IMG/VR virus record: IMGVR_UViG_3300034407_001303
Coordinates: 1-22,890 of that record
Strand: one strand, 5' to 3'
From: a virus
Length of the DNA stretch: 22,890 nt
Shown here: positions 1 to 11,780 of the stretch, in pieces
How the letters are laid out: each line of letters begins with the position of its first letter
Position numbering within the stretch: the stretch's first letter is position 1
Notes under the pieces: model-generated
Told to the model about the DNA's origin: nothing
Seen by the model: the letters and a program-made list of their open reading frames with translations, nothing else
Databases searched by the model: none
Program-made: the position numbers and the translations under genes

Positions 1-69
1 CTTATTGTCACTTACAGCTATATGTTTTTCTAGTGTTACATGAATCTCTTGAATGGTAGGTTTAGCCAT
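1..69 (-). CDS. Partial CDS, unknown small protein (C-terminus beyond left edge)
   Basis: An ATG at 69 on the minus strand shares its A with the TAA stop of the preceding gene (TAATG), and 23 codons stay open to the window edge. The visible protein begins MAKPTIQEIHVTLEKHIAVS, charged and probably helical. Its ribosome binding site, AGGAG, lies inside the last codons of the upstream gene, as for the other genes of this cluster. The position, directly after the tail fibre genes, would suit a small lysis or tail accessory protein, but too little is visible to assign a family. Confidence 0.6.
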   Translation of the reverse strand, partial: MAKPTIQEIHVTLEKHIAVSDNK

Positions 70-476
70 TATGCTAAATCTCCTGCTACCATTCCCATAA
101 CATAACCATTATCTAATGGAGTACCACCACTTGATATATTTTTAGTTCTTACAAAACTTGCACTAGTTGATGCAGGTTCATAATACATATTATAACTATT
201 TATACCAGACTGACTGTTACTACCATTTGTTCCAGTAGTCGTACAAAAATCATCACTACTCATAACATTAGTAAAGTTATGTTGATGGTCTCCAGTTCCT
301 ATATCTGTCATATCAGTTATATTAAATTTATCACGATAGTCATCATCTGAATTTAAATTAAACCATGCTTTAACTAACCCTTGTTGTAAACTTGTAGTAG
401 CTGTTCCCTCACCTCTTACTGTTATAGCATTAGCAGAACTAACACCGACTAGGGCATCTACGTTTAATGTACTCAT
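69..476 (-). CDS. Tail fibre-associated beta-domain protein, tandem paralogue 3
   Basis: This 135-aa protein is the third of three neighbouring paralogues. All begin with a short M-S/A-x-L-N/K-V-[DN] peptide and then share a core of QGL-x-K-x-W (QQGLVKAWFNL here), F-N-[IV]-x-x-[MI]-TD-x-G-TG, an N-x-M stretch, and a C-terminal GDLA. I recognise the K-A-W...F-N-...TD-G-T-G pattern as a beta-rich domain common in tail fibre and appendage proteins of marine phages, which I infer to be a virion surface or fibre-tip role. No signal peptide or enzyme motif is visible. The ATG overlaps the upstream TGA (ATGA) and has AGGAG about 8 nt upstream, within the upstream coding sequence. Confidence 0.8.
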   Translation of the reverse strand: MSTLNVDALVGVSSANAITVRGEGTATTSLQQGLVKAWFNLNSDDDYRDKFNITDMTDIGTGDHQHNFTNVMSSDDFCTTTGTNGSNSQSGINSYNMYYEPASTSASFVRTKNISSGGTPLDNGYVMGMVAGDLA

Positions 477-883
477 GCTAAATCTCCTAGTAATGATACA
501 TAAGTAACGGCATTAACAACTGACCCTGCATCATTTCTTGTCTCTACACGAACTTGAGATGCTGTTTGTGTTCCAGAATCGACTGCTCCATAAGTAGCTG
601 TTTCACCACTTGATATATGAACTACATAATTTACAGTTGCCATGTCATTTGTTATAACCATCATAATTTGACCAGTTCCATTGTCTGTCATAGAATCAAT
701 ATTAAATGAATCCACTAGAGATATAGCAGCTCCACTACTTGTAGTTGGTGCATCAATATCTACCCAAGCCTTAGTCAATCCTTGTTGTAAATTTGTTGTT
801 GTTGAATTTCCCTCGCCAGTAACAGCGATTGATCCTGCTGTGCTTAAACCAGTGAGTGTATTTACTTTTAATTGTGATGCCAT
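473..883 (-). CDS. Tail fibre-associated beta-domain protein, tandem paralogue 2
   Basis: This 136-aa protein is the middle member of the tandem set. It opens MASQLKVNTLTGLSTAG, like the leader peptides that begin or punctuate many marine phage fibre proteins. It then shows LQQGLTKAWVDID, DSFNIDSMTDNGTG, ITNDM, a Thr/Ser/Ala-rich beta stretch and a C-terminal LLGDLA. It is closest to the paralogue at 69-476: both have GEG followed by TT and LQQGL near residue 30. The ATG shares a base with the previous stop (TAATG) and uses the AGGAG in the preceding gene's GDLA codons. It probably forms part of the tail fibre or its tip. Confidence 0.8.
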   Translation of the reverse strand: MASQLKVNTLTGLSTAGSIAVTGEGNSTTTNLQQGLTKAWVDIDAPTTSSGAAISLVDSFNIDSMTDNGTGQIMMVITNDMATVNYVVHISSGETATYGAVDSGTQTASQVRVETRNDAGSVVNAVTYVSLLGDLA

Positions 884-1314
884 TATGCTAAATCTCCTGC
901 TATTTGTACGCCAAATATAGTGCTGTCAGCAAGAGCATTATATCGTCTACCAGATACTTTGCAATCAGTAGTATTTACGACAGAACAACCAGAATAAATT
1001 CCTACACCACCACTAGTAGATTCACTATTACCTGCTGTTGTTACAGAATAATCATCATTAGCCATATTATTGGCTATTGTTACTGTGGTTGTTCCTCCAC
1101 CACCATCCGTTATAGTAGTCACATTAAAACTACCTTGTATTGCTTGTGTACCACTCTGATTAATCTGTACCCAACACTTCATCAACCCTTGCACAGTATT
1201 CTGTGTAACTGCACCACCATCAGATACATAGGTTGAGGTGTTAGCCATCTTAACATTTGACCCACCACTACCTGCTTTATCTACAATGGTATCTACATTT
1301 AATTGACTACTCAT
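883..1314 (-). CDS. Tail fibre-associated beta-domain protein, tandem paralogue 1
   Basis: This protein has 143 aa when started at the ATG at 1314, which overlaps the preceding TGA as ATGA. An open frame extends four codons further to a TTG at 1326, but the overlap junction matches the rest of the cluster, so the ATG is preferred. The protein starts MSSQLNVDTIVDKAGSGGSN, a leader typical of marine phage fibre proteins. It continues with NTVQGLMKCWVQI, GSFNVTTITDGGGG, IANNMANDDYSV and C-terminal IAGDLA. It is the most divergent of the three paralogues in its N-terminal third. A virion adhesin or fibre-tip role is inferred. Confidence 0.78.
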   Translation of the reverse strand: MSSQLNVDTIVDKAGSGGSNVKMANTSTYVSDGGAVTQNTVQGLMKCWVQINQSGTQAIQGSFNVTTITDGGGGTTTVTIANNMANDDYSVTTAGNSESTSGGVGIYSGCSVVNTTDCKVSGRRYNALADSTIFGVQIAGDLA

Positions 1315-1493
1315 ACTATTGTCCAATTCCCACTAAGAGTTATAGTTGTGCCTGATCCAATAGTAATTGGTCCACAAGACAAAGCATTGTTAGTTGCATC
1401 AACAGTTAATGATCCAGTAACAGTATTTTCATGTTGTTGTATAATAGCTTCGTAACTTGTAGTGTCAGCTTTCTTACCGATATTATTAAACAT
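1311..1493 (-). CDS. Small tail fibre terminal-domain-like protein (60 aa)
   Basis: This 60-aa protein starts at an ATG preceded by GGAG about 7 nt upstream, and its stop overlaps the next start (ATGA). The first 25 residues are polar. The rest is a beta-type sequence with GSLTVDATNNALSCGPITIG followed by GTTITLSGNWTIV. I recognise this ending as like the extreme C-termini of marine phage fibre proteins (…GPITI…G…VT…W.V), here standing alone as a separate gene. It may be a detached distal fibre domain or a fibre cap. Confidence 0.7.
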   Translation of the reverse strand: MFNNIGKKADTTSYEAIIQQHENTVTGSLTVDATNNALSCGPITIGSGTTITLSGNWTIV

Positions 1494-4231: not shown

Positions 4232-7200
4232 CTACCTCATTATATTATTTATTTTTTCGAACTTCTTTTTTTTGATAGCATTTGATCTTTCTATTCTATC
4301 TCTGATAGCGCTACCAAACTTGTCATCATTAAGAAGATCGTTTTTTGCTTCTGCCCTAGCGGATACAACAGCTCCATTTAACATGGTTTCTGCTGTCTCT
4401 CTAGCAGACACATCTCCTGCAACTAACCAGGCTTTTTTTAGATTTTGATATTCACTTGTTGCAATTATCTTTTCAGCTGCATCAAGTGTTCTGATACCAG
4501 AGTATTGATGTAACTTATCAATTTCTTCTCCTGTAAGACCTACGTCAGCATCCCAGGTTTCATGATGTTTAGATGGTCCAAATCTTAAAGCAATAAACTC
4601 CTGGTCAATTTTATAAGTTCTTTTAGCATAAGCTTCTTGAGCTTTCCCACTACCAGCTAACTCATTACTTTCTGTAACTGCGTTATTAGGTCCTATAGTT
4701 GAGCTGTAAATAGGACTGATTATGTCTGGTCCATAAGCTCCAGATAACATTATTTTTTGACCCCACAAGTTTCGTCTTGGAAAAAGATCATTACTTAAAA
4801 ATGGGATCTGTGATTTTAATTGATCTATTAATCCATAAGTTGCCCTTACTAAAGGATCAACAGTTTTTTCTCCCTGGGCCGCTATTCTTGGTACAATAGA
4901 TTTCCAAAAGTTTTCAGCTGTTGAGCCAGCATATCTGTCTGGATCTTGCAAAGCTTTCATCAATGAGCTGAAACCTTGCATAAAGGTTTTATTTGTCATT
5001 TGATTACCAAGAGCTGCTGCTAAAGCTGCCATGACAGCTTTACCTTTTTCGTCATCTCCATCACCACTTTGCATGGCTTCTGCTGCATCTGCCGCCAATC
5101 CTAAAATTGATGAGAATGGCTCAGCTGCCTGGTATGAATAGTATGTATTACCAATCTTAATTGAGTAAGGCTGCCATCCGGTTCGTCTTAAAGCACTTCT
5201 TAAATCTGGATCAGTTGGGCCACCACCTGTAACCTCACCATTTTTTGCCATCATAAATACAGCAGCTCCTGTAGCGTTACCCACAAATAGCTTTGCCTGG
5301 GCCATTTGACCAGCGGCTTTATCTGCTGCTGAAGCACCAGGAGCTTTAGCCGCTTTCATAGCTGCCGCAGTTTCACCATAGAAGAATCCAATAGGTCCTC
5401 TATCAATAGCAGCATATTTAAATGCGTTATATGGTGTTTTGAAAAATGGCAGAAAATATCTCATTCCTGGTATTTTTCTTATTGCGTTAATTCCCTTACC
5501 AACATTATCTAAATCAGTTTGTAATGTTATATATTTAGCGTGTGAGTCTGTTTGTTTTACAGCTGCATCTGGTGGATTAAATACATAATCTCCAATATGG
5601 TTTGATAACTCATCACCAGATAAACCTTTTGTTTTACCAGATCTATAGGCTTGCTGATAAATGCTCATACGTTTTGCCATCACCTTGAAAAACGTATCTT
5701 CAAATTCTAGCAGCCTTGTTGGTATTCTGCCTAAAGTTGCAAAGTTACCAGCAATATCAATAAAGTTACCTATCATTCCATTAGCTTCAAAAGCTTCAGC
5801 TGTAAAATCATTACCAAATCTTTTTGTGCCAGAACCTTGTAGCTTTGATCCCTCAATAGGAGATTGACCATATTTAAAAGATGAACCAGCTGCGCTAAAT
5901 GCTTCTCGTAAAACCATTAAGCCAGCAAATAACTGTGCGTTTCCTTCTCCTATGTAAGCTCCACCTTCACCGCCCATAGCTCTTTTAACTGTGCCTATGC
6001 CACCAGCAACATAAGATTCACCAACATGAGCCAAGGTTGTAAGAATGTTTCCTGTAATATTTTTGACATGAGTAATACCAGAAGATAATAAAATGTTTAT
6101 CCAGGCTTCGTATAAAGCATCACCCATCTTTTTAAGCTTAGAGCCTTTATTAGCAAAAGCTAATTTAGCTGCGTTGCTTTCACCAGAGGTAAGATACATT
6201 CTGGCCATATCTTTTATATCATCTACACCGCCAAAGCTTTCTAATAGAGTATTTACATTAGCTGTTCTGGTTTGGTCAAAATCGCCACCCCTTACAGGAA
6301 TCTTAAATTGCCCTAACGCTCTAGCTATTTCTGTCTGCGCTCCTTTAATTTGAGCTTGTAAATTACCGACTAATTCTAATTGAGTCCTAAAATCTAATAC
6401 AGCCTGGTTATCTCCGCCATCTGCTTTCAATGCAAGCTCATCTAATTTCTTAACTTCTGCAACTAAAAGTTCTCTGGAAGCCAGCATTGTTTCTGCCAGG
6501 CCAGCATCTGAAGTTATTACGCCACCTTTTTTTCTTTCTAATATACTTTTAGTTAATGTTTTAGCATCAACACCTAAATCATCAGCAAGAGATTGTGTTG
6601 CTTTTTGTGTTATTTCACCTCTATTGGCATCTGTTATCTTGTCTTTAAAAGTAAGACTAACGCTATCTATTGTTGAATAAATATTTCCTTCATTTGGAAT
6701 TTTAGCATCACCACCAGCGCCAACAGCTCTAAAGTCTGACAACATACCATCATTTAGATTGACCGGTTTTAAATTAGATTTAAAATTTTCTGCGTTTTTA
6801 GCTTCTTCAGCTTTTCTTATCTTTAATGCAGCAGCTTCTTTTGTATATTGTTCCTCTGTTACTATTCTTACAGGTAATGTTTCAAGCTCCATATCCTTAG
6901 AAGCAAACCAGGTAGCATTACCATCCATCAATCTGTAAGTACCATCTCCATTATCTATAACACTTAATGGACCTCGTTTACCTCTTTGGCCACCAGCTGC
7001 TTCAGACATAAGTCTTTTAGCAACAGGTATTCCTTTATTATCAGCACTCTTAGTAGGAATAATCTTATCTATAGCTATATCAACAGTATCATTTGTCCTG
7101 GTAAAATATGATGAGCTATCTTTAAGATTAAATGCAGGAACTTTAACATCTGTTCCTGGTGGTTTTGGCCCTATAAAATTTTTATTATCTATTAATTCCT

Positions 7201-7510
7201 GTTCTCTTTGAATTGCTTTCCCAAAAGTATTATTAGAATTTTTAAGTAAATCCTCAAGTTTTCTTAATGGATAAGAAACAACAGGAGCTACATAATCAGA
7301 CACAACACTTGATATACCAGAGTATTTTGCTAACTGAATAAACTGTTCATCCTGGTTAACAGGCAAAGTATAACTGTTATTAGGCGCAATATTTTGATTG
7401 TCAAAACTAATACTAGGCTGAAGTAACTCAGACCCATCAAGCGGTTTAACTACGTCACCAGCAACAGATTTTTCAATATCAAGATTTTCTATGGAGTTTG
7501 GTATAGACAA
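4232..7510 (-). CDS. Large internal virion / ejection-type protein with N-terminal ParB-like domain
   Basis: This 1092-aa protein is the largest in the window. Residues about 145-222 look like a ParB/sulfiredoxin-fold domain: IDKIIPTKS, GPLSVIDNGDGTYRLMDGNATW, then LPVRIVT, where DGNATW sits at the usual DGxRR box. Residues 345-405 are helical. From about 465 to 930 there is a long module with WINILLSSGITHVKNITGN, IPGMRYFLPFFKTPYNAFKY and GWQPYSIKIGNTYYSYQAAEPFSSI, a layout I associate with large phage polyvalent or ejection proteins. It sits where T7 has gp16, but no transglycosylase motif is visible. The start is a TTG: an in-frame TAA lies immediately upstream and the first internal ATG is near residue 168. 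It is probably packaged and ejected with DNA. Confidence 0.82.
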   Translation of the reverse strand: MSIPNSIENLDIEKSVAGDVVKPLDGSELLQPSISFDNQNIAPNNSYTLPVNQDEQFIQLAKYSGISSVVSDYVAPVVSYPLRKLEDLLKNSNNTFGKAIQREQELIDNKNFIGPKPPGTDVKVPAFNLKDSSSYFTRTNDTVDIAIDKIIPTKSADNKGIPVAKRLMSEAAGGQRGKRGPLSVIDNGDGTYRLMDGNATWFASKDMELETLPVRIVTEEQYTKEAAALKIRKAEEAKNAENFKSNLKPVNLNDGMLSDFRAVGAGGDAKIPNEGNIYSTIDSVSLTFKDKITDANRGEITQKATQSLADDLGVDAKTLTKSILERKKGGVITSDAGLAETMLASRELLVAEVKKLDELALKADGGDNQAVLDFRTQLELVGNLQAQIKGAQTEIARALGQFKIPVRGGDFDQTRTANVNTLLESFGGVDDIKDMARMYLTSGESNAAKLAFANKGSKLKKMGDALYEAWINILLSSGITHVKNITGNILTTLAHVGESYVAGGIGTVKRAMGGEGGAYIGEGNAQLFAGLMVLREAFSAAGSSFKYGQSPIEGSKLQGSGTKRFGNDFTAEAFEANGMIGNFIDIAGNFATLGRIPTRLLEFEDTFFKVMAKRMSIYQQAYRSGKTKGLSGDELSNHIGDYVFNPPDAAVKQTDSHAKYITLQTDLDNVGKGINAIRKIPGMRYFLPFFKTPYNAFKYAAIDRGPIGFFYGETAAAMKAAKAPGASAADKAAGQMAQAKLFVGNATGAAVFMMAKNGEVTGGGPTDPDLRSALRRTGWQPYSIKIGNTYYSYQAAEPFSSILGLAADAAEAMQSGDGDDEKGKAVMAALAAALGNQMTNKTFMQGFSSLMKALQDPDRYAGSTAENFWKSIVPRIAAQGEKTVDPLVRATYGLIDQLKSQIPFLSNDLFPRRNLWGQKIMLSGAYGPDIISPIYSSTIGPNNAVTESNELAGSGKAQEAYAKRTYKIDQEFIALRFGPSKHHETWDADVGLTGEEIDKLHQYSGIRTLDAAEKIIATSEYQNLKKAWLVAGDVSARETAETMLNGAVVSARAEAKNDLLNDDKFGSAIRDRIERSNAIKKKKFEKINNIMR

Positions 7511-7550: not shown

Positions 7551-9020
7551 CTATATTCCAGGAACACTTAAATTAATTTGATCGTAAATTGGTTTCCATA
7601 TATCAGCACCAGCTACTAAAGCAGCTGTTGCTATGCTCTCACTTTCTTTAAGCATATTTTGATAGTCACCTTTTTTAGCATCATCTTTTTCTATAACTCT
7701 GGCTTTATCGTAGATACTCCAGAGCTGTTCTTTAACAGCGCCCATTTCCTGTGACCAAATCTGAACTTCTGCTTTCTTGCCTTCCGGTGTTGTAACAATT
7801 ACTTTTCTGTCAAAGTACCCACCAGGGTAAGCTCTCCAGCCTTCATCAACTATCTCATAGTTTTCACTTAACATTTTTACGATTGCTTCTGCATCTTCTG
7901 GTCTATCAGTATTAACACCTGTTCTGACAATATCAGTTACCTGGTCTGGATCTGTGTAACCTTTAGCACCTACTTTTCTTCTTAGGCTGTCTTTTGTTTT
8001 TATCCCTGGGTCTACTGTCGTTGCACCTGTAACAACAGATTTGTCATTAACATTTAATGGATTTTCAGTAGCTTCTTTTAAAAAACCAACTAAACCAGCT
8101 TGAGCTTCTTCTGCGTTATTATAAACTTTCTTTAAAAATCTTTCAGTAGGACTAGCCATATCAGCAAGGAAGTTTGCACCTTTAGCTAAAGCACCACCGA
8201 AAAGCGCACCCATTCCAAAAGATTGAGCTGACTGACCAAAATCAAACCCTGCCTGTTCTCCGCCCTGGATCTTTACAGACTGTCTAAGACCATCATCAGC
8301 AGCAAAATATGTACCGCCTTCAAATGCAGCCAGAGCTGTTGTGCTTTTAATTGATCCTTTTAAAGCTTCTACAATCCCTTTTTTAGTTGTTTGAGCTACA
8401 CCATGTCTACCAACAACACCTATGCCAAGCGTTCCCAGGCCCACATAAGTAGTAGGATCTGTCAGCATATTCTTAAAAAATCTTCCTGTTCCTGCCCAGG
8501 TTATTTCTTTATCGTCATAAGTTTTCATCATTTGCAGAAAACGAAACTTAGTATCATCTTCCATGCCAGATAGCTGACCAGTTCTTATTCCCATCATTGG
8601 TAAGTTATAATTAAAAGTTCCCATGAACTCTAAGCCAAAATCTGCATATTCCCTTTTCTGCTCATCTGACATTTGCTCAAATGGTATGTCAGCTAAAAGC
8701 TTTGGGCCTTCAGCATTATTACTATTCATTATTTTTTGGGCAGCAGATCTGTAACTTGCAGGACCTACTGTACCTACATTCTTTTCTCCAGCCTGGGCAA
8801 AAGCTACATTTGGTCTGTAAAACTTATCATAGATAAGCTTGCTGCTTACAATCCAATTAGTATCTGAAAAAAGATCTTCTTCTTTTATATCTCTTTTTAT
8901 ATCAGTTTGATCTTTGTCAAATAAATAATCTGAATTAGATTCTGGCGGCGCATCTTCTGCCCACGATTTCTTATGAAGTATATCTTGCCTTCTGTTAATA
9001 TATTCTTCTAGGTATCCCAT
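7551..9020 (-). CDS. Internal virion / ejection-type protein with C-terminal RelA/SpoT-like domain
   Basis: This is a 489-aa protein. The N-terminal part has EEYINRRQDILHKK, ADFGLEFMGTFNYNLPMMG and FFKNMLTDPTTYVGLG, and is rich in small residues with weakly hydrophobic stretches near 190-205 and 265-285, typical of internal or polyvalent phage proteins. Residues about 341-440 resemble a RelA/SpoT nucleotidyltransferase: VTDIVRTGV (D363), GYFDRK (G401-Y402) and AEVQIWSQEM (E418, Q420). The D-to-E spacing of 55 and Y-to-E spacing of 16 fit the alarmone synthetase fold, but the usual QIRT is QIWS and GYRSLH is GYFDRK. Activity is uncertain. The next gene, 40 nt away, carries a ParB-like domain. 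The ATG has AGGAT upstream. Confidence 0.8.
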   Translation of the reverse strand: MGYLEEYINRRQDILHKKSWAEDAPPESNSDYLFDKDQTDIKRDIKEEDLFSDTNWIVSSKLIYDKFYRPNVAFAQAGEKNVGTVGPASYRSAAQKIMNSNNAEGPKLLADIPFEQMSDEQKREYADFGLEFMGTFNYNLPMMGIRTGQLSGMEDDTKFRFLQMMKTYDDKEITWAGTGRFFKNMLTDPTTYVGLGTLGIGVVGRHGVAQTTKKGIVEALKGSIKSTTALAAFEGGTYFAADDGLRQSVKIQGGEQAGFDFGQSAQSFGMGALFGGALAKGANFLADMASPTERFLKKVYNNAEEAQAGLVGFLKEATENPLNVNDKSVVTGATTVDPGIKTKDSLRRKVGAKGYTDPDQVTDIVRTGVNTDRPEDAEAIVKMLSENYEIVDEGWRAYPGGYFDRKVIVTTPEGKKAEVQIWSQEMGAVKEQLWSIYDKARVIEKDDAKKGDYQNMLKESESIATAALVAGADIWKPIYDQINLSVPGI

Positions 9021-9028
9021 GCCATATC

Positions 9029-10837
9029 CTATTTAGGGTTTTTGATGTCATCTTCTTCTGAAGAACTAAATATACTCAGTATGGAATCCCAGGTACTTAC
9101 ACCACCGGATTTTGCATCAGTATCATTTTGACCTTTTTGCGCTTTTAATTGTTTAATAAAATTACCTTTGTCGATTTGATAGGTTTCTATTTCATTTATT
9201 GTTTCTTTTTCTAAAACAACTTCTATAGGTGAATAGATGCGTTTATTCGTTGTAGGGTTTATAGGATTACTTTTTACAAATTCTCTAGCTTTGATAATAT
9301 CGTCTTTAGTCCAGTTTTTAATTTCCTTTTTGCCAATCGCTTTTGACAATGCAGAAGTCGGAGCTATGAAACCTATATCTTGCTCCAGGTTTCTTGCATA
9401 CATACCAGCAACCTCTTTATAGGCTTCTAGTGGGGATTTTTTCCCATCAGTAACAAGAGTGTAATAAGTAGACATAGCATCAGCTCTTAATAAACCTGTG
9501 CTAGTTTTTTGTTTGTAACCACCCATTGAAATGCCACCAGCTGAATCACCAATAGCTGTTTTTAATATGCCAGCATAACGCTTGATCTGGTTTGATTCAC
9601 TTGAGCTGTTTAAATATCCTTTTGCAGTTTTAATAATATTAACAGCATCACCAACAACTAAGCTCCCATTTAAACCAATATTACTTTTAACTTCTTCAAT
9701 AACTTCCATAATCTCATCATTGTTTTTTGCTTCAGCTAATCTTTCATGAAAGCCAACAACTACAGAAGCATCAGACACAGGCGCATCTTTTCCTAAAATA
9801 AGATCATTTAAAATTTTAAATTGTTTGTCATCAATGTCTGCATTTTTATAAGATTGTAAAATTTGATTTGTTGTCGGTAGCTGAACTGTAGATCCATCTC
9901 TTGAAGCTTCAATTAAATTAGTTATGAAATTATCAAAATTACCCTGTTGTTTAATTTTAAGATCTTTTGTATTTTTTTTAGCAGTTCTATTATCTTCAGC
10001 AATCCTTCTTCTTTCTAAAGTTCCAACTAAGTTATTCGCTTCTCTAAGTAAATTATCTCTGTCTGCTGGTTTTAAAAAAGGAAAGTTTTTAGGATCACTT
10101 AAATTTTGTAGCACTACTAAAGCATCACCTGGCTTACCAGAAATAGCAGCGTTACTTATTTGCTGTCTTACACCAATTCTTGCGACATTACCTCTTGCTG
10201 ATAAATTTTTATTAGTTGCTTCAACATTTGTGAAATACCCTGTTCTCGCTGCGTTTTGATACAAACCGCCTACAAACTTACCAGGTGATATTTCAACACC
10301 AAACAATTCTATCTGAGCTTTAGACTTTTCAGCAGGATTTCCTGTTGCAATAATATTTTCTAATTGGGTTGCTCTTGTAATGATTTGAGCTTTACCAATA
10401 TCAATCGCTGAGTTTCTGACAGTCTGCATAACTGACAGACGTTTGTTTGAGACATTACTTGCAGCACTTGCTAAAAACCTTTTTTTAACAATACCATCAT
10501 CAATCTTACCAGCTATTCTTTTACTTGAATTAGACACAACTTTATTATAATTTTTTAAAGCTTTGCTTGGGTTTTGTTGGGCATTTGTCTTTGCTAGTAT
10601 TTGTTCATTGTCTAATATAATTTTAAATTCATTTTCAGCAGCTGCTAGTTTAGAAGCTCTTTCTGCTTTTAACTCTTGTTCATACCAGGCAAGACTTTCT
10701 TTTTGTGCGCCAGCTGCAACTTGTGTAAAGGCAGCCGCTCCAGCTGTAAGAGCAGAAGGGTTTGCCTGGACACTAAATTGAGTAGCTCCAACCTTAGATG
10801 TTACAACACCTTGGCTTTGATAAGTAGGAACTTTCAT
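9029..10837 (-). CDS. Internal virion protein (T7 gp15-position)
   Basis: This 602-aa protein is Lys/Asn/Ala-rich and largely alpha-helical, with long charged helices (for example LAWYEQELKAERASKLAAAE near 50-70) and no signal peptide or enzyme motif that I recognise. It starts MKVPTYQSQGVVTSK and ends with an acidic SSSEEDDIKNPK tail. It lies directly after the gp14-like gene and before the other large internal proteins, which is the place of gp15 in T7-like phages, where such proteins form part of the ejected core channel. Assignment rests on size, composition and order rather than on a motif. The start shares its A with the previous TAA (TAATG). Confidence 0.75.
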   Translation of the reverse strand: MKVPTYQSQGVVTSKVGATQFSVQANPSALTAGAAAFTQVAAGAQKESLAWYEQELKAERASKLAAAENEFKIILDNEQILAKTNAQQNPSKALKNYNKVVSNSSKRIAGKIDDGIVKKRFLASAASNVSNKRLSVMQTVRNSAIDIGKAQIITRATQLENIIATGNPAEKSKAQIELFGVEISPGKFVGGLYQNAARTGYFTNVEATNKNLSARGNVARIGVRQQISNAAISGKPGDALVVLQNLSDPKNFPFLKPADRDNLLREANNLVGTLERRRIAEDNRTAKKNTKDLKIKQQGNFDNFITNLIEASRDGSTVQLPTTNQILQSYKNADIDDKQFKILNDLILGKDAPVSDASVVVGFHERLAEAKNNDEIMEVIEEVKSNIGLNGSLVVGDAVNIIKTAKGYLNSSSESNQIKRYAGILKTAIGDSAGGISMGGYKQKTSTGLLRADAMSTYYTLVTDGKKSPLEAYKEVAGMYARNLEQDIGFIAPTSALSKAIGKKEIKNWTKDDIIKAREFVKSNPINPTTNKRIYSPIEVVLEKETINEIETYQIDKGNFIKQLKAQKGQNDTDAKSGGVSTWDSILSIFSSSEEDDIKNPK

Positions 10838-11340
10838 TAGGCTGTCGCATAAATTCTAGCGCCGGTAGATGCGCCGCTAAGTAATGATCCAAACGCCTTA
10901 ATGTTCCCTGCTCTCCTTGCTTCTCTGCCATATAATCTATTTAAGTTACCTTGCATAGTCTGTTGCAATCCTTGTTCTTCAAGTTGTTGCTTACCAACTT
11001 GGGCATTATATCTTTTAATATTTATTTCATTGTCAGCTTCCTGGGCATTTGCCAGAGCTATTTTAAGTGGAGTGCCACTATCTGCTAACCATCCATTATA
11101 TGAATTAGCCATTTGTGTTTGCTGCGCCAACTCATCATAAGAGTTTTCAAATTGCACAATCTGTAGTTCTTCAGCAAGAATGAGCTGGTCCGCAGCAATC
11201 TGTGAAGCATCAGCATTTCTGTCGTTAATATCAGCATTGTATTTATAAGCTGCTTCTTGGCCTTTGCCCTGGGCCGCATGGCCTGCCGCTGTTGCTACAG
11301 TTGATATGACCGCTGCTGCTATTGCTACTTCTACACCCAT
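10837..11340 (-). CDS. Internal virion protein, T7 gp14-like
   Basis: This 167-aa protein has a hydrophobic Ala-rich N-terminus (VAIAAAVISTVATAAGHAAQG, about 4-24), then a long Gln/Ala/Asn-rich helix with YKYNADINDRNADASQIAAD, and a C-terminal ARRAGNIKAFGSLLSGASTG segment. This is the usual pattern of podovirus gp14-type proteins, which are stored in the head and inserted into the outer membrane at ejection. It is overlapped by a TAATG junction at each end and followed by the gp15-position protein. I am fairly sure of the family by layout, not by a catalytic motif. Confidence 0.8.
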   Translation of the reverse strand: MGVEVAIAAAVISTVATAAGHAAQGKGQEAAYKYNADINDRNADASQIAADQLILAEELQIVQFENSYDELAQQTQMANSYNGWLADSGTPLKIALANAQEADNEINIKRYNAQVGKQQLEEQGLQQTMQGNLNRLYGREARRAGNIKAFGSLLSGASTGARIYATA

Positions 11341-11780
11341 TAAGTTATCCTCGCTACTCTGTAATAATCAGATCCATCTGGACCAAATTTTTCCATTAAA
11401 CCTTCTTGCTTAAAACCTAAGAACCTTGAGAACCTTTGAGCTTCCGGCCAATCTGTTCTGACTGCTGCCTGGACTCTTTTAAATTCATGTTCTTCAATAA
11501 TCTTTTTAAAATCTTTTGTGACTGCTTTTATGATTGGCTTGCTATAATCATGTAGCCTTTCACTAGCCAAAAACCACGCTTCACCGACCCCATTCCATAA
11601 AGGTATAATCCCAGCACACGCTATCAAATACCCATTGTCCAGGGCAGTAAACGCTGTTCCAGGGGTGTTTAGGTTGTCAGCAAAGTTCCTAAACTGTCCA
11701 ATATGTTTTGGTGCGCCTTTATTCATTTCACCAGCCAGAATATCCCTTGCGTGTTCTGGCTTGTAATCAACAATAATCAT
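11340..11780 (-). CDS. GNAT-fold acetyltransferase-like protein (T7 gp13 position)
   Basis: This 146-aa protein has a GNAT-like order of elements: an N-terminal YKPEHARDIL helix, LIACAGIIPLWNGVGEAWFL as the central strands, KPIIKAVTKDFKKIIEE as a helix, and AVRTDWPEAQRFSRFLGFKQEG, which matches the usual N/D-x-x-A-x-x-F-x-x-x-LGF-x-x-EG end of the fold. The standard Q/R-x-x-G-x-G/A acetyl-CoA loop is not obvious, so catalytic activity is doubtful. Proteins of this fold stand at the gp13 position in many podoviruses and help assemble the internal core. The start overlaps the preceding stop (ATGA). Confidence 0.8.
   Translation of the reverse strand: MIIVDYKPEHARDILAGEMNKGAPKHIGQFRNFADNLNTPGTAFTALDNGYLIACAGIIPLWNGVGEAWFLASERLHDYSKPIIKAVTKDFKKIIEEHEFKRVQAAVRTDWPEAQRFSRFLGFKQEGLMEKFGPDGSDYYRVARIT

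What the first reader, a model, noticed from the sequence alone, without database searches (positions are those of the whole stretch)
6845..7078. ParB-like domain at the start of the giant internal protein, next to the RelA/SpoT-like domain
Residues 145-222 have IIPTKS, GDGTYRLMDGNATW and LPVRIVT, the order seen in ParB/sulfiredoxin-fold domains (ILP…G-x-Y-x-x-x-DG-x-x-R/T…P-V-x-V). Such domains bind or hydrolyse nucleotides such as CTP or ATP, or act as nucleases. The RelA-like and ParB-like domains lie on consecutive genes, 40 nt apart. Together with the downstream module of the 1092-aa protein, this resembles one phage polyvalent protein split in two, a possible effector pair that enters with DNA.
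Basis: partly seen in the sequence, partly recalled or inferred. Interest (0 to 1): 0.7.

Follow-up and report, generated by a model that had tools for sequence, protein, structure and literature searches.

The report
Split phage injection protein carrying effectors
A marine short-tailed phage appears to carry two nucleotide-handling domains, one like bacterial alarmone-synthesising toxins and one like a ParB/sulfiredoxin domain, inside the proteins it probably ejects into its host with its DNA, and many uncultured relatives carry the same pair shuffled in different ways.

Summary
The ParB-like domain is real. From the window alone the evidence is weak (Pfam ParB_N E 0.13). A 10-sequence family profile finds Noc at E 9.6e-6, then Spo0J, KorB and SbnI, and the AlphaFold model matches ParB/sulfiredoxin folds (SerK Z 10.4, Noc 9.2, SbnI 9.0). 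The clade has DGN[AS/G]T where ParB/Srx proteins have a motif arginine, so canonical CTPase or nuclease activity is doubtful. The host gene is a T7 gp16-type ejection protein. The gene before it carries a RelA-fold synthetase domain whose best PDB sequence match is the type VI toxin Tas1/Apk1 (E 1.4e-10), with donor-site D, R, E and Q conserved but an unusual acceptor motif (FDxK). Linkage is strong: the two domains share one polypeptide in four RelA sequence clusters, in both orders, and lie on adjacent genes in two more. LUZ100 gp47 is an unsplit gp16 without the inserts; L088 is a 2481-aa fusion of synthetase and gp16 C-part. Where the synthetase is absent, the slot holds an ART-PolyVal or DUF7178 domain. 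New variant of a known kind.

The parts
6854..7096 (-).
   Evidence: Profile vs PDB, AlphaFold model m26f584418733, Foldseek and VIA-align
6911..6925 (-). DGNAT motif (residues 196-200), in place of the GxxR arginine motif of ParB; D, G, N and T invariant in the clade
   Evidence: Alignment A2, relatives with DG[ST]HR, HMMER alignment to Noc
6935..6952 (-). NGDGTY hairpin motif (residues 187-192)
   Evidence: Alignment A2: DGTY invariant among ten
4232..7510 (-). P1: 1092-aa gp16-type internal virion (ejection) protein with the ParB-like domain near its N-terminus; TTG start
   Evidence: PHROG 6651 internal virion protein E 3.9e-38; tblastn hits to internal virion proteins D of marine podoviruses
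4232..6790 (-). gp16-like C-terminal part of P1 (residues 241-1092), shared by relatives with and without the ParB-like domain
7551..9020 (-). P2: 489-aa upstream protein; N-terminal/middle part homologous to the N-terminus of LUZ100 gp47 (gp16-like)
   Evidence: hhalign E 2e-36 to LUZ100 gp47 residues 38-234
7551..8090 (-). RelA-fold synthetase domain (P2 residues 311-489), Tas1/Apk-like; invariant K341, K349, D363, R366, F403-D404-x-K406, E418, Q420
   Evidence: Pfam RelA_SpoT 1.1e-5, just below cut-off; Tas1 E 1.4e-10; model matches SAS1 Z 13.4, Tas1 Z 10.7; alignment A3
8091..8684 (-). gp16 N-terminal-part homology in P2 (residues 113-310)
   Evidence: LUZ100 46.6% identity over residues 113-260, hhalign
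9029..10837 (-). gp15-position protein (602 aa), upstream in the ejection-protein operon
   Evidence: Gene order as in LUZ100; conserved upstream in relatives
10837..11340 (-). gp14-type internal virion protein
   Evidence: PHROG 418 E 1.4e-9

Best explanation
The window's 489-aa and 1092-aa genes are the two halves of a T7 gp16-type ejection protein. Between the gp16 N-terminal part (in P2) and C-terminal part (in P1), two nucleotide-handling domains are inserted: a Tas1/Apk-like RelA-fold pyrophosphokinase and a divergent ParB/sulfiredoxin-fold domain. The gene break falls between the two. Most likely mechanism: the domains are packaged in the virion, enter the cell with the genome, and act on the host nucleotide pool or an RNA/nucleotide target early in infection. 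The synthetase-like domain would pyrophosphorylate an adenosine, guanosine or RNA acceptor. The ParB-like domain would bind a nucleotide (or the synthetase product) and tune or complement that activity. Shown by computation: both folds, conservation of synthetase donor-site residues, recurrent physical linkage, homology to ejection proteins. Inferred: packaging, ejection, catalytic activity, substrate, cooperation of the two domains.
For: ParB/Srx fold. gp16 identity. LUZ100 gp47 is the unsplit, insert-free form (P2-like at 38-234, E 2e-36; P1-like at 792-1030, E 5.7e-5). Synthetase: with DxxR, E and Q as in Apk1/SaEAS (against residues listed in PMC12691689). Linkage: of 14 RelA-domain clusters at 75% identity, 4 have the DGN-type ParB domain in the same protein (one RelA-ParB, three ParB-RelA), 2 in the adjacent gene, 5 have only a DGHQR-type domain, and 3 have neither (one of these truncated). 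L105-L107 were recruited by the ParB profile alone and all proved to contain the synthetase domain. Slot swapping: ART-PolyVal in L011, DUF7178 in L013/L014. Precedent for RelA plus ParB in polyvalent proteins: PMC5512222.
Against: No peptide, virion proteome or assay supports packaging or activity. The ParB-like clade lacks the superfamily arginine. The synthetase acceptor motif (FDxK) is neither the GxN of Apk2 nor the SxH of RelA, so substrate and even activity are uncertain. The L009-type lineage keeps the synthetase without the ParB-like domain, and large phages keep the ParB-like domain without a synthetase in the same protein or fetched neighbourhood, so neither strictly needs the other. 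In T7 the gp16 N-terminal domain resides in the periplasm (PMC8954989), where ATP would be scarce.
Confidence: 0.5

Rival explanations
1. The ParB-like domain is a regulator of the synthetase: it keeps the toxic domain off in the producing cell during late expression and assembly (an immunity-like role) and releases it after ejection.
For: Synthetases of the Tas1/Apk kind are paired with immunity proteins (PMC12226406, PMC12691689). The DGN-type domain is linked to the synthetase in six clusters in three arrangements.
Against: The L009-type lineage has the synthetase without any ParB-like domain in P1 or P2. The domain also occurs without a synthetase in large phage contigs L028, L029, L039, L112.
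Confidence: 0.2
2. The domain is a non-enzymatic leftover or structural module of the ejection machinery that kept the ParB/Srx fold but lost its catalysis.
For: The motif arginine is replaced by threonine throughout the clade. Ejection proteins are mosaic, with domains swapped between them (PMC8954989).
Against: DGN[AS]T, GDGTY and KRxP stay invariant or nearly so across sequences about 30% identical, which suggests a ligand site. dN/dS is 0.03-0.14. Linkage is to an enzyme-like domain, not to a fixed structural partner.
Confidence: 0.2
3. A conventional ParB-type CTPase or ParB-like nuclease injected with the DNA.
For: Fold and profile matches to ParB_N, Noc and ParB. Nuclease/NTPase activity is proposed for DdrB-like ParB domains of polyvalent proteins (PMC5512222).
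Against: The GxxR arginine is missing. The matched stretch covers only the ParB N domain; no ParB DNA-binding domain follows, as the rest of P1 is gp16-like.
Confidence: 0.08
4. Chance resemblance of a short hairpin to ParB.
For: Window-only profile E-values are 0.05-0.13. The DNGDGTY hairpin also matches filamins and an adhesin by chance (L044).
Against: The match extends over the whole ParB domain in Noc, and the listed folds are ParB/Srx relatives.
Confidence: 0.02

Closest known systems
Phage polyvalent proteins (Iyer et al. 2017, PMC5512222), including the DdrB-like ParB plus RelA/SpoT combination in Helicobacter prophages
   Same: Phage multidomain proteins combining ParB/Srx-fold, RelA-fold, ART and other effector domains; late-gene context
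   Different: Here the domains sit in a split T7 gp16-type ejection protein of marine podovirus-like contigs; no metallopeptidase match in P1/P2; the ParB-like domain lacks the arginine described as highly conserved in DdrB-like ParB
T7 gp16 / Pseudomonas phage LUZ100 gp47 (internal virion protein D)
   Same: Operon position; for LUZ100 gp47, N-terminal and C-terminal homology in one chain
   Different: T7 carries a transglycosylase at the N-terminus and LUZ100 has no such inserts; here two genes and two inserted nucleotide-handling domains
Tas1/Apk1, Apk2 (MuF) and exported alarmone synthetases
   Same: RelA-fold synthetase domain attached to a delivery protein; DxxR, E and Q donor-site residues
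   Different: Acceptor motif FDxK instead of GxN; no dedicated immunity gene identified; delivered, if at all, by the ejection machinery
ParB/Noc, SbnI, SerK, sulfiredoxin (ParB/Srx superfamily)
   Same: Fold and strand/helix order; position of the DGxxx motif
   Different: Arginine replaced by threonine; no ParB DNA-binding domain; different genomic role

Membership tests
ParB/sulfiredoxin superfamily | b-a-b-b-a-b fold shared with ParB N domain, Srx, SerK, SbnI | tested here: met
ParB/sulfiredoxin superfamily | Conserved arginine in the GxxR motif of the nucleotide pocket | tested here: not met
   DGNAT in the window, DGN[AS/G]T in the clade; DG[ST]HR only in L043, L115, L116
ParB/sulfiredoxin superfamily | Nucleotide binding, NTPase or nuclease activity | not testable with these tools
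   needs biochemistry
DdrB-like ParB domains of polyvalent proteins | Highly conserved active-site arginine described in PMC5512222 | tested here: not met
   no arginine at the motif position; Pfam scan of ten members reports ParB_N as the only ParB-type model
T7 gp16-type ejection protein | Homology to internal virion protein D and operon order 14-15-16-tail fibre | tested here: met
T7 gp16-type ejection protein | Packaging in the capsid and ejection into the host | not testable with these tools
   needs virion proteomics and infection experiments
T7 gp16-type ejection protein | N-terminal peptidoglycan hydrolase (present in T7, not universal) | tested here: not met
   no Pfam hydrolase match in P1, P2, P3 at E<1
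RelA-fold synthetase (Tas1/Apk-like) | SYNTH fold and sequence similarity | tested here: met
RelA-fold synthetase (Tas1/Apk-like) | Donor-site D, R (DxxR), E and Q | tested here: met
   invariant D363, R366, E418, Q420, compared with residues in PMC12691689
RelA-fold synthetase (Tas1/Apk-like) | Acceptor motif GxN (Apk2) or SxH (RelA) | tested here: not met
   FDxK in all ten sequences; motif definitions from PMC12226406
Phage polyvalent protein | Several unrelated effector domains combined in one phage protein, with frequent reshuffling | tested here: met
   met by relatives L027, L037, L045, L105-L107, L088; slot swaps in L011, L013, L014. In the window itself the domains are on two genes

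The most novel reading that the evidence does not exclude
Uncultured marine podoviruses use the gp16 ejection protein as an effector carrier: a Tas1-like pyrophosphokinase with a new acceptor specificity (FDxK) and an arginine-less ParB/Srx-fold nucleotide-binding partner form a functional pair that enters the host in the first moments of infection, with the effector slot exchanged between phages (synthetase, ADP-ribosyltransferase, DUF7178).
Probability: 0.3. Interest if true: 0.8.

Novelty: new variant of a known kind. Interest (0 to 1): 0.6.

Why it matters
It would show that the DNA-ejection machinery of T7-like phages doubles as a delivery vehicle for exchangeable enzymes, including a relative of a bactericidal interbacterial toxin. 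It would give a defined, testable pair (synthetase plus ParB-like domain) for the open question of what polyvalent proteins do at the start of infection. It also marks a ParB/Srx clade with an altered active site. No paper in the library searched holds both 'internal virion protein' and 'ParB' together with a word beginning 'rela'.

Tried and rejected
Window-only searches against Pfam, PHROGs and NCBIfam gave only sub-threshold ParB hits. tblastn of the ParB domain against isolate phages gave only hits of E 2 or worse; the ParB-RelA segment of L037 gave none, nor did the synthetase segment of L076. The genome contigs match L044 is a chance hit of the DNGDGTY hairpin in a repeat adhesin. PADLOC gave nothing useful. 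I tried to link P1's C-part to L043 (which has a weak LPD38 match) and to the virion protein of L045; hhalign was negative. The DGHQR domain found with the synthetase in many relatives looks ParB-like by motif, but profile searches and comparison with the DGN clade were inconclusive, so it is not counted as ParB. A paper search for Tas1, ppApp, phage and virion together found none. Sequencing error as cause of the gene split was rejected because relatives keep the same gap.

Full report
What is there. The window is a virus record of 22,890 bases with the late gene order of a T7-like podovirus on the minus strand: terminase, portal, capsid, tail tubes A and B, a gp13/GNAT-like protein, a gp14-type protein, a gp15-position protein, P2 (489 aa), P1 (1092 aa) and tail fibre (terminase, portal and capsid by my reading of the translations). 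The finding lies in P1, window:4232-7510:-, residues 145-222.

The three motifs are at the stated residues. P1 starts at TTG, 40 nt after the P2 stop, with an in-frame TAA directly before the start. L002, L021 and L024 keep the same gap, and L002 and L021 were listed with the same TTG start.

Is it ParB? From the window alone only weak hits appear, but they agree in position across libraries. Relatives were collected from viral contigs. A profile of ten sequences matches solved ParB-family chains: Noc 9.6e-6, Spo0J 0.0018, ParB 0.0037, KorB 0.010, SbnI 0.032. The AlphaFold model has a confident core (block pLDDT about 80-93 over P1 residues 139-219) with strand-helix-strand-strand-helix-strand order. 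Foldseek and VIA-align list ParB/Srx-superfamily chains throughout: SerK Z 10.4, Noc 9.2, SbnI 9.0, sulfiredoxin 8.6, ParB 8.4, Osa 5.9. Membership in the ParB/Srx fold superfamily is therefore well supported.

What is unusual in it. In the HMMER alignment to Noc the ParB box GERR lines up with the family's GNST/GNAT. Distant relatives L043 and L115/L116 have DGTHR and DGSHR at this place, but every member of the window's clade has DGN[AS/G]T. The arginine that PMC5512222 describes as typical of the active-site pocket has no counterpart at this position in the clade, while D, G, N and T are invariant and the GDGTY hairpin nearly so (L075 has ENGTY). The fold is retained, the ligand site is changed. 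I therefore do not carry over CTPase or nuclease activity.

The partner gene. P2's last 180 residues match Pfam RelA_SpoT just below its cut-off (E 1.1e-5, 26.1 bits against 27). The family profile matches Tas1 in the PDB at 1.4e-10, the next hit being 0.065. The model matches small alarmone synthetases (SAS1 Z 13.4), Tas1 (10.7) and CapRel (9.9) (Foldseek). D363, R366, E418 and Q420 are invariant and correspond to the D, R, E and Q reported for SaEAS and Apk1 (PMC12691689). The acceptor motif is F-D-x-K in all ten sequences, unlike GxN (Apk2) or SxH (RelA) described in PMC12226406. So it is a Tas1/Apk-like synthetase domain whose acceptor cannot be predicted.

The carrier. P1 matches the PHROG internal virion protein family (3.9e-38) and internal virion proteins D of marine podoviruses. 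Pseudomonas phage LUZ100 gp47, annotated as similar to T7 gp16, contains the P2 N-terminal/middle region at residues 38-234 (E 2e-36) and the P1 C-terminal region at 792-1030 (E 5.7e-5, probability 66%) in one chain. In T7, gp16 is ejected, its N-terminal domain residing in the periplasm and its C-terminal domain reaching the cytoplasm (review PMC8954989). The simplest reading is that P2 and P1 are the halves of a gp16, with the synthetase domain at the end of the first and the ParB-like domain near the start of the second. P1, P2 and P3 have no Pfam hydrolase match.

Linkage test. RelA-fold domains fetched from all loci fall into 14 clusters at 75% identity. DGN-type ParB domain in the same protein: L027 (RelA then ParB), L037, L045 and L106 (ParB then RelA). 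In the adjacent gene: the window/L020 cluster and L075. DGHQR-type domain only: L078, L084, L095, L088 and L100. Neither: the L009 cluster (23 loci), L085 and the truncated L087. L105-L107 were found with the ParB profile alone and turned out to carry the synthetase in the same protein. Conversely, the DGN-type domain occurs without a synthetase in large-phage contigs (L028, L029, L039, L112). Loci overlap and several contigs were fetched repeatedly; clusters, not loci, are the unit, and the number of independent events is small. L088 shows synthetase, DGHQR domain and gp16 C-part in one 2481-aa chain. In loci whose P2 lacks the synthetase, the slot holds an ART-PolyVal domain (L011, E 1.4e-4, below cut-off) or DUF7178 (L013, L014, E 2.7e-12 and 1e-11). 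This is the behaviour expected of an exchangeable effector slot.

Selection. Between the window and L002, and between L021 and L024, dN/dS in the ParB region is 0.03 and 0.14, against 0.23 and 0.25 in the N-terminal 125 residues. Pairs window-L021 and window-L024 have saturated dS and are only indicative.

How it most likely works (inference). Both domains travel in the virion and act on nucleotides in the newly infected cell; the synthetase-like domain is the probable effector and the ParB-like domain a nucleotide-binding partner or regulator. Rivals are a cis-regulator, a structural leftover, and a conventional ParB enzyme. The gp16 N-terminal side is periplasmic in T7, which would be a problem for an ATP-dependent enzyme unless the inserted domains pass to the cytoplasm; this is unresolved.

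Relation to known systems. Polyvalent proteins with DdrB-like ParB and RelA/SpoT domains are known, including both in one protein family in Helicobacter prophages (PMC5512222). Apk2-type synthetases fused to the MuF capsid-associated domain are known in temperate phages. New here, as far as my searches reach, are the gp16-type carrier, the split, the arginine-less ParB clade and the FDxK acceptor motif. Hence: new variant of a known kind.

Noticed in passing
window 69-1326, minus strand: Three consecutive small ORFs (135, 136, 147 aa) share a pattern (QGLxKxW ... GDLA) and look like tandem paralogues of a tail-tip or fibre protein.
   Followed up: no
window 11340-11780, minus strand: GNAT-like protein in the T7 gp13 position (PHROG 4177 E 2.3e-30, PHROG 308 E 1.7e-9).
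   Followed up: partly
L011:3296-5410, L013:2897-5458, L014:2835-5414: P2-equivalents with an ART-PolyVal or DUF7178 domain where the window has the synthetase domain.
   Followed up: partly
L088:4997-12442: 2481-aa protein with synthetase, DGHQR domain and gp16 C-part in one chain on a 64.6-kb contig.
   Followed up: partly
L037, L045, L076, L088, L089, L106: A conserved ADGHQR domain (about 150 aa) accompanies the synthetase domain; it resembles ParB/Srx by motif only, profile searches were inconclusive. Relatives occur in Ruegeria and Prochlorococcus phages.
   Followed up: partly
L028, L029, L039, L112: Large-phage contigs encode 1063-1331-aa proteins with the DGN-type ParB domain; L028 and L039 have a weak SWIM zinc-finger match near the C-terminus.
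   Followed up: no
L031:2715-5579 (Pelagibacter phage HTVC028P gp34): 954-aa hypothetical protein in the P2 position of an isolate phage, without any Pfam match; a possible carrier of another cargo.
   Followed up: partly
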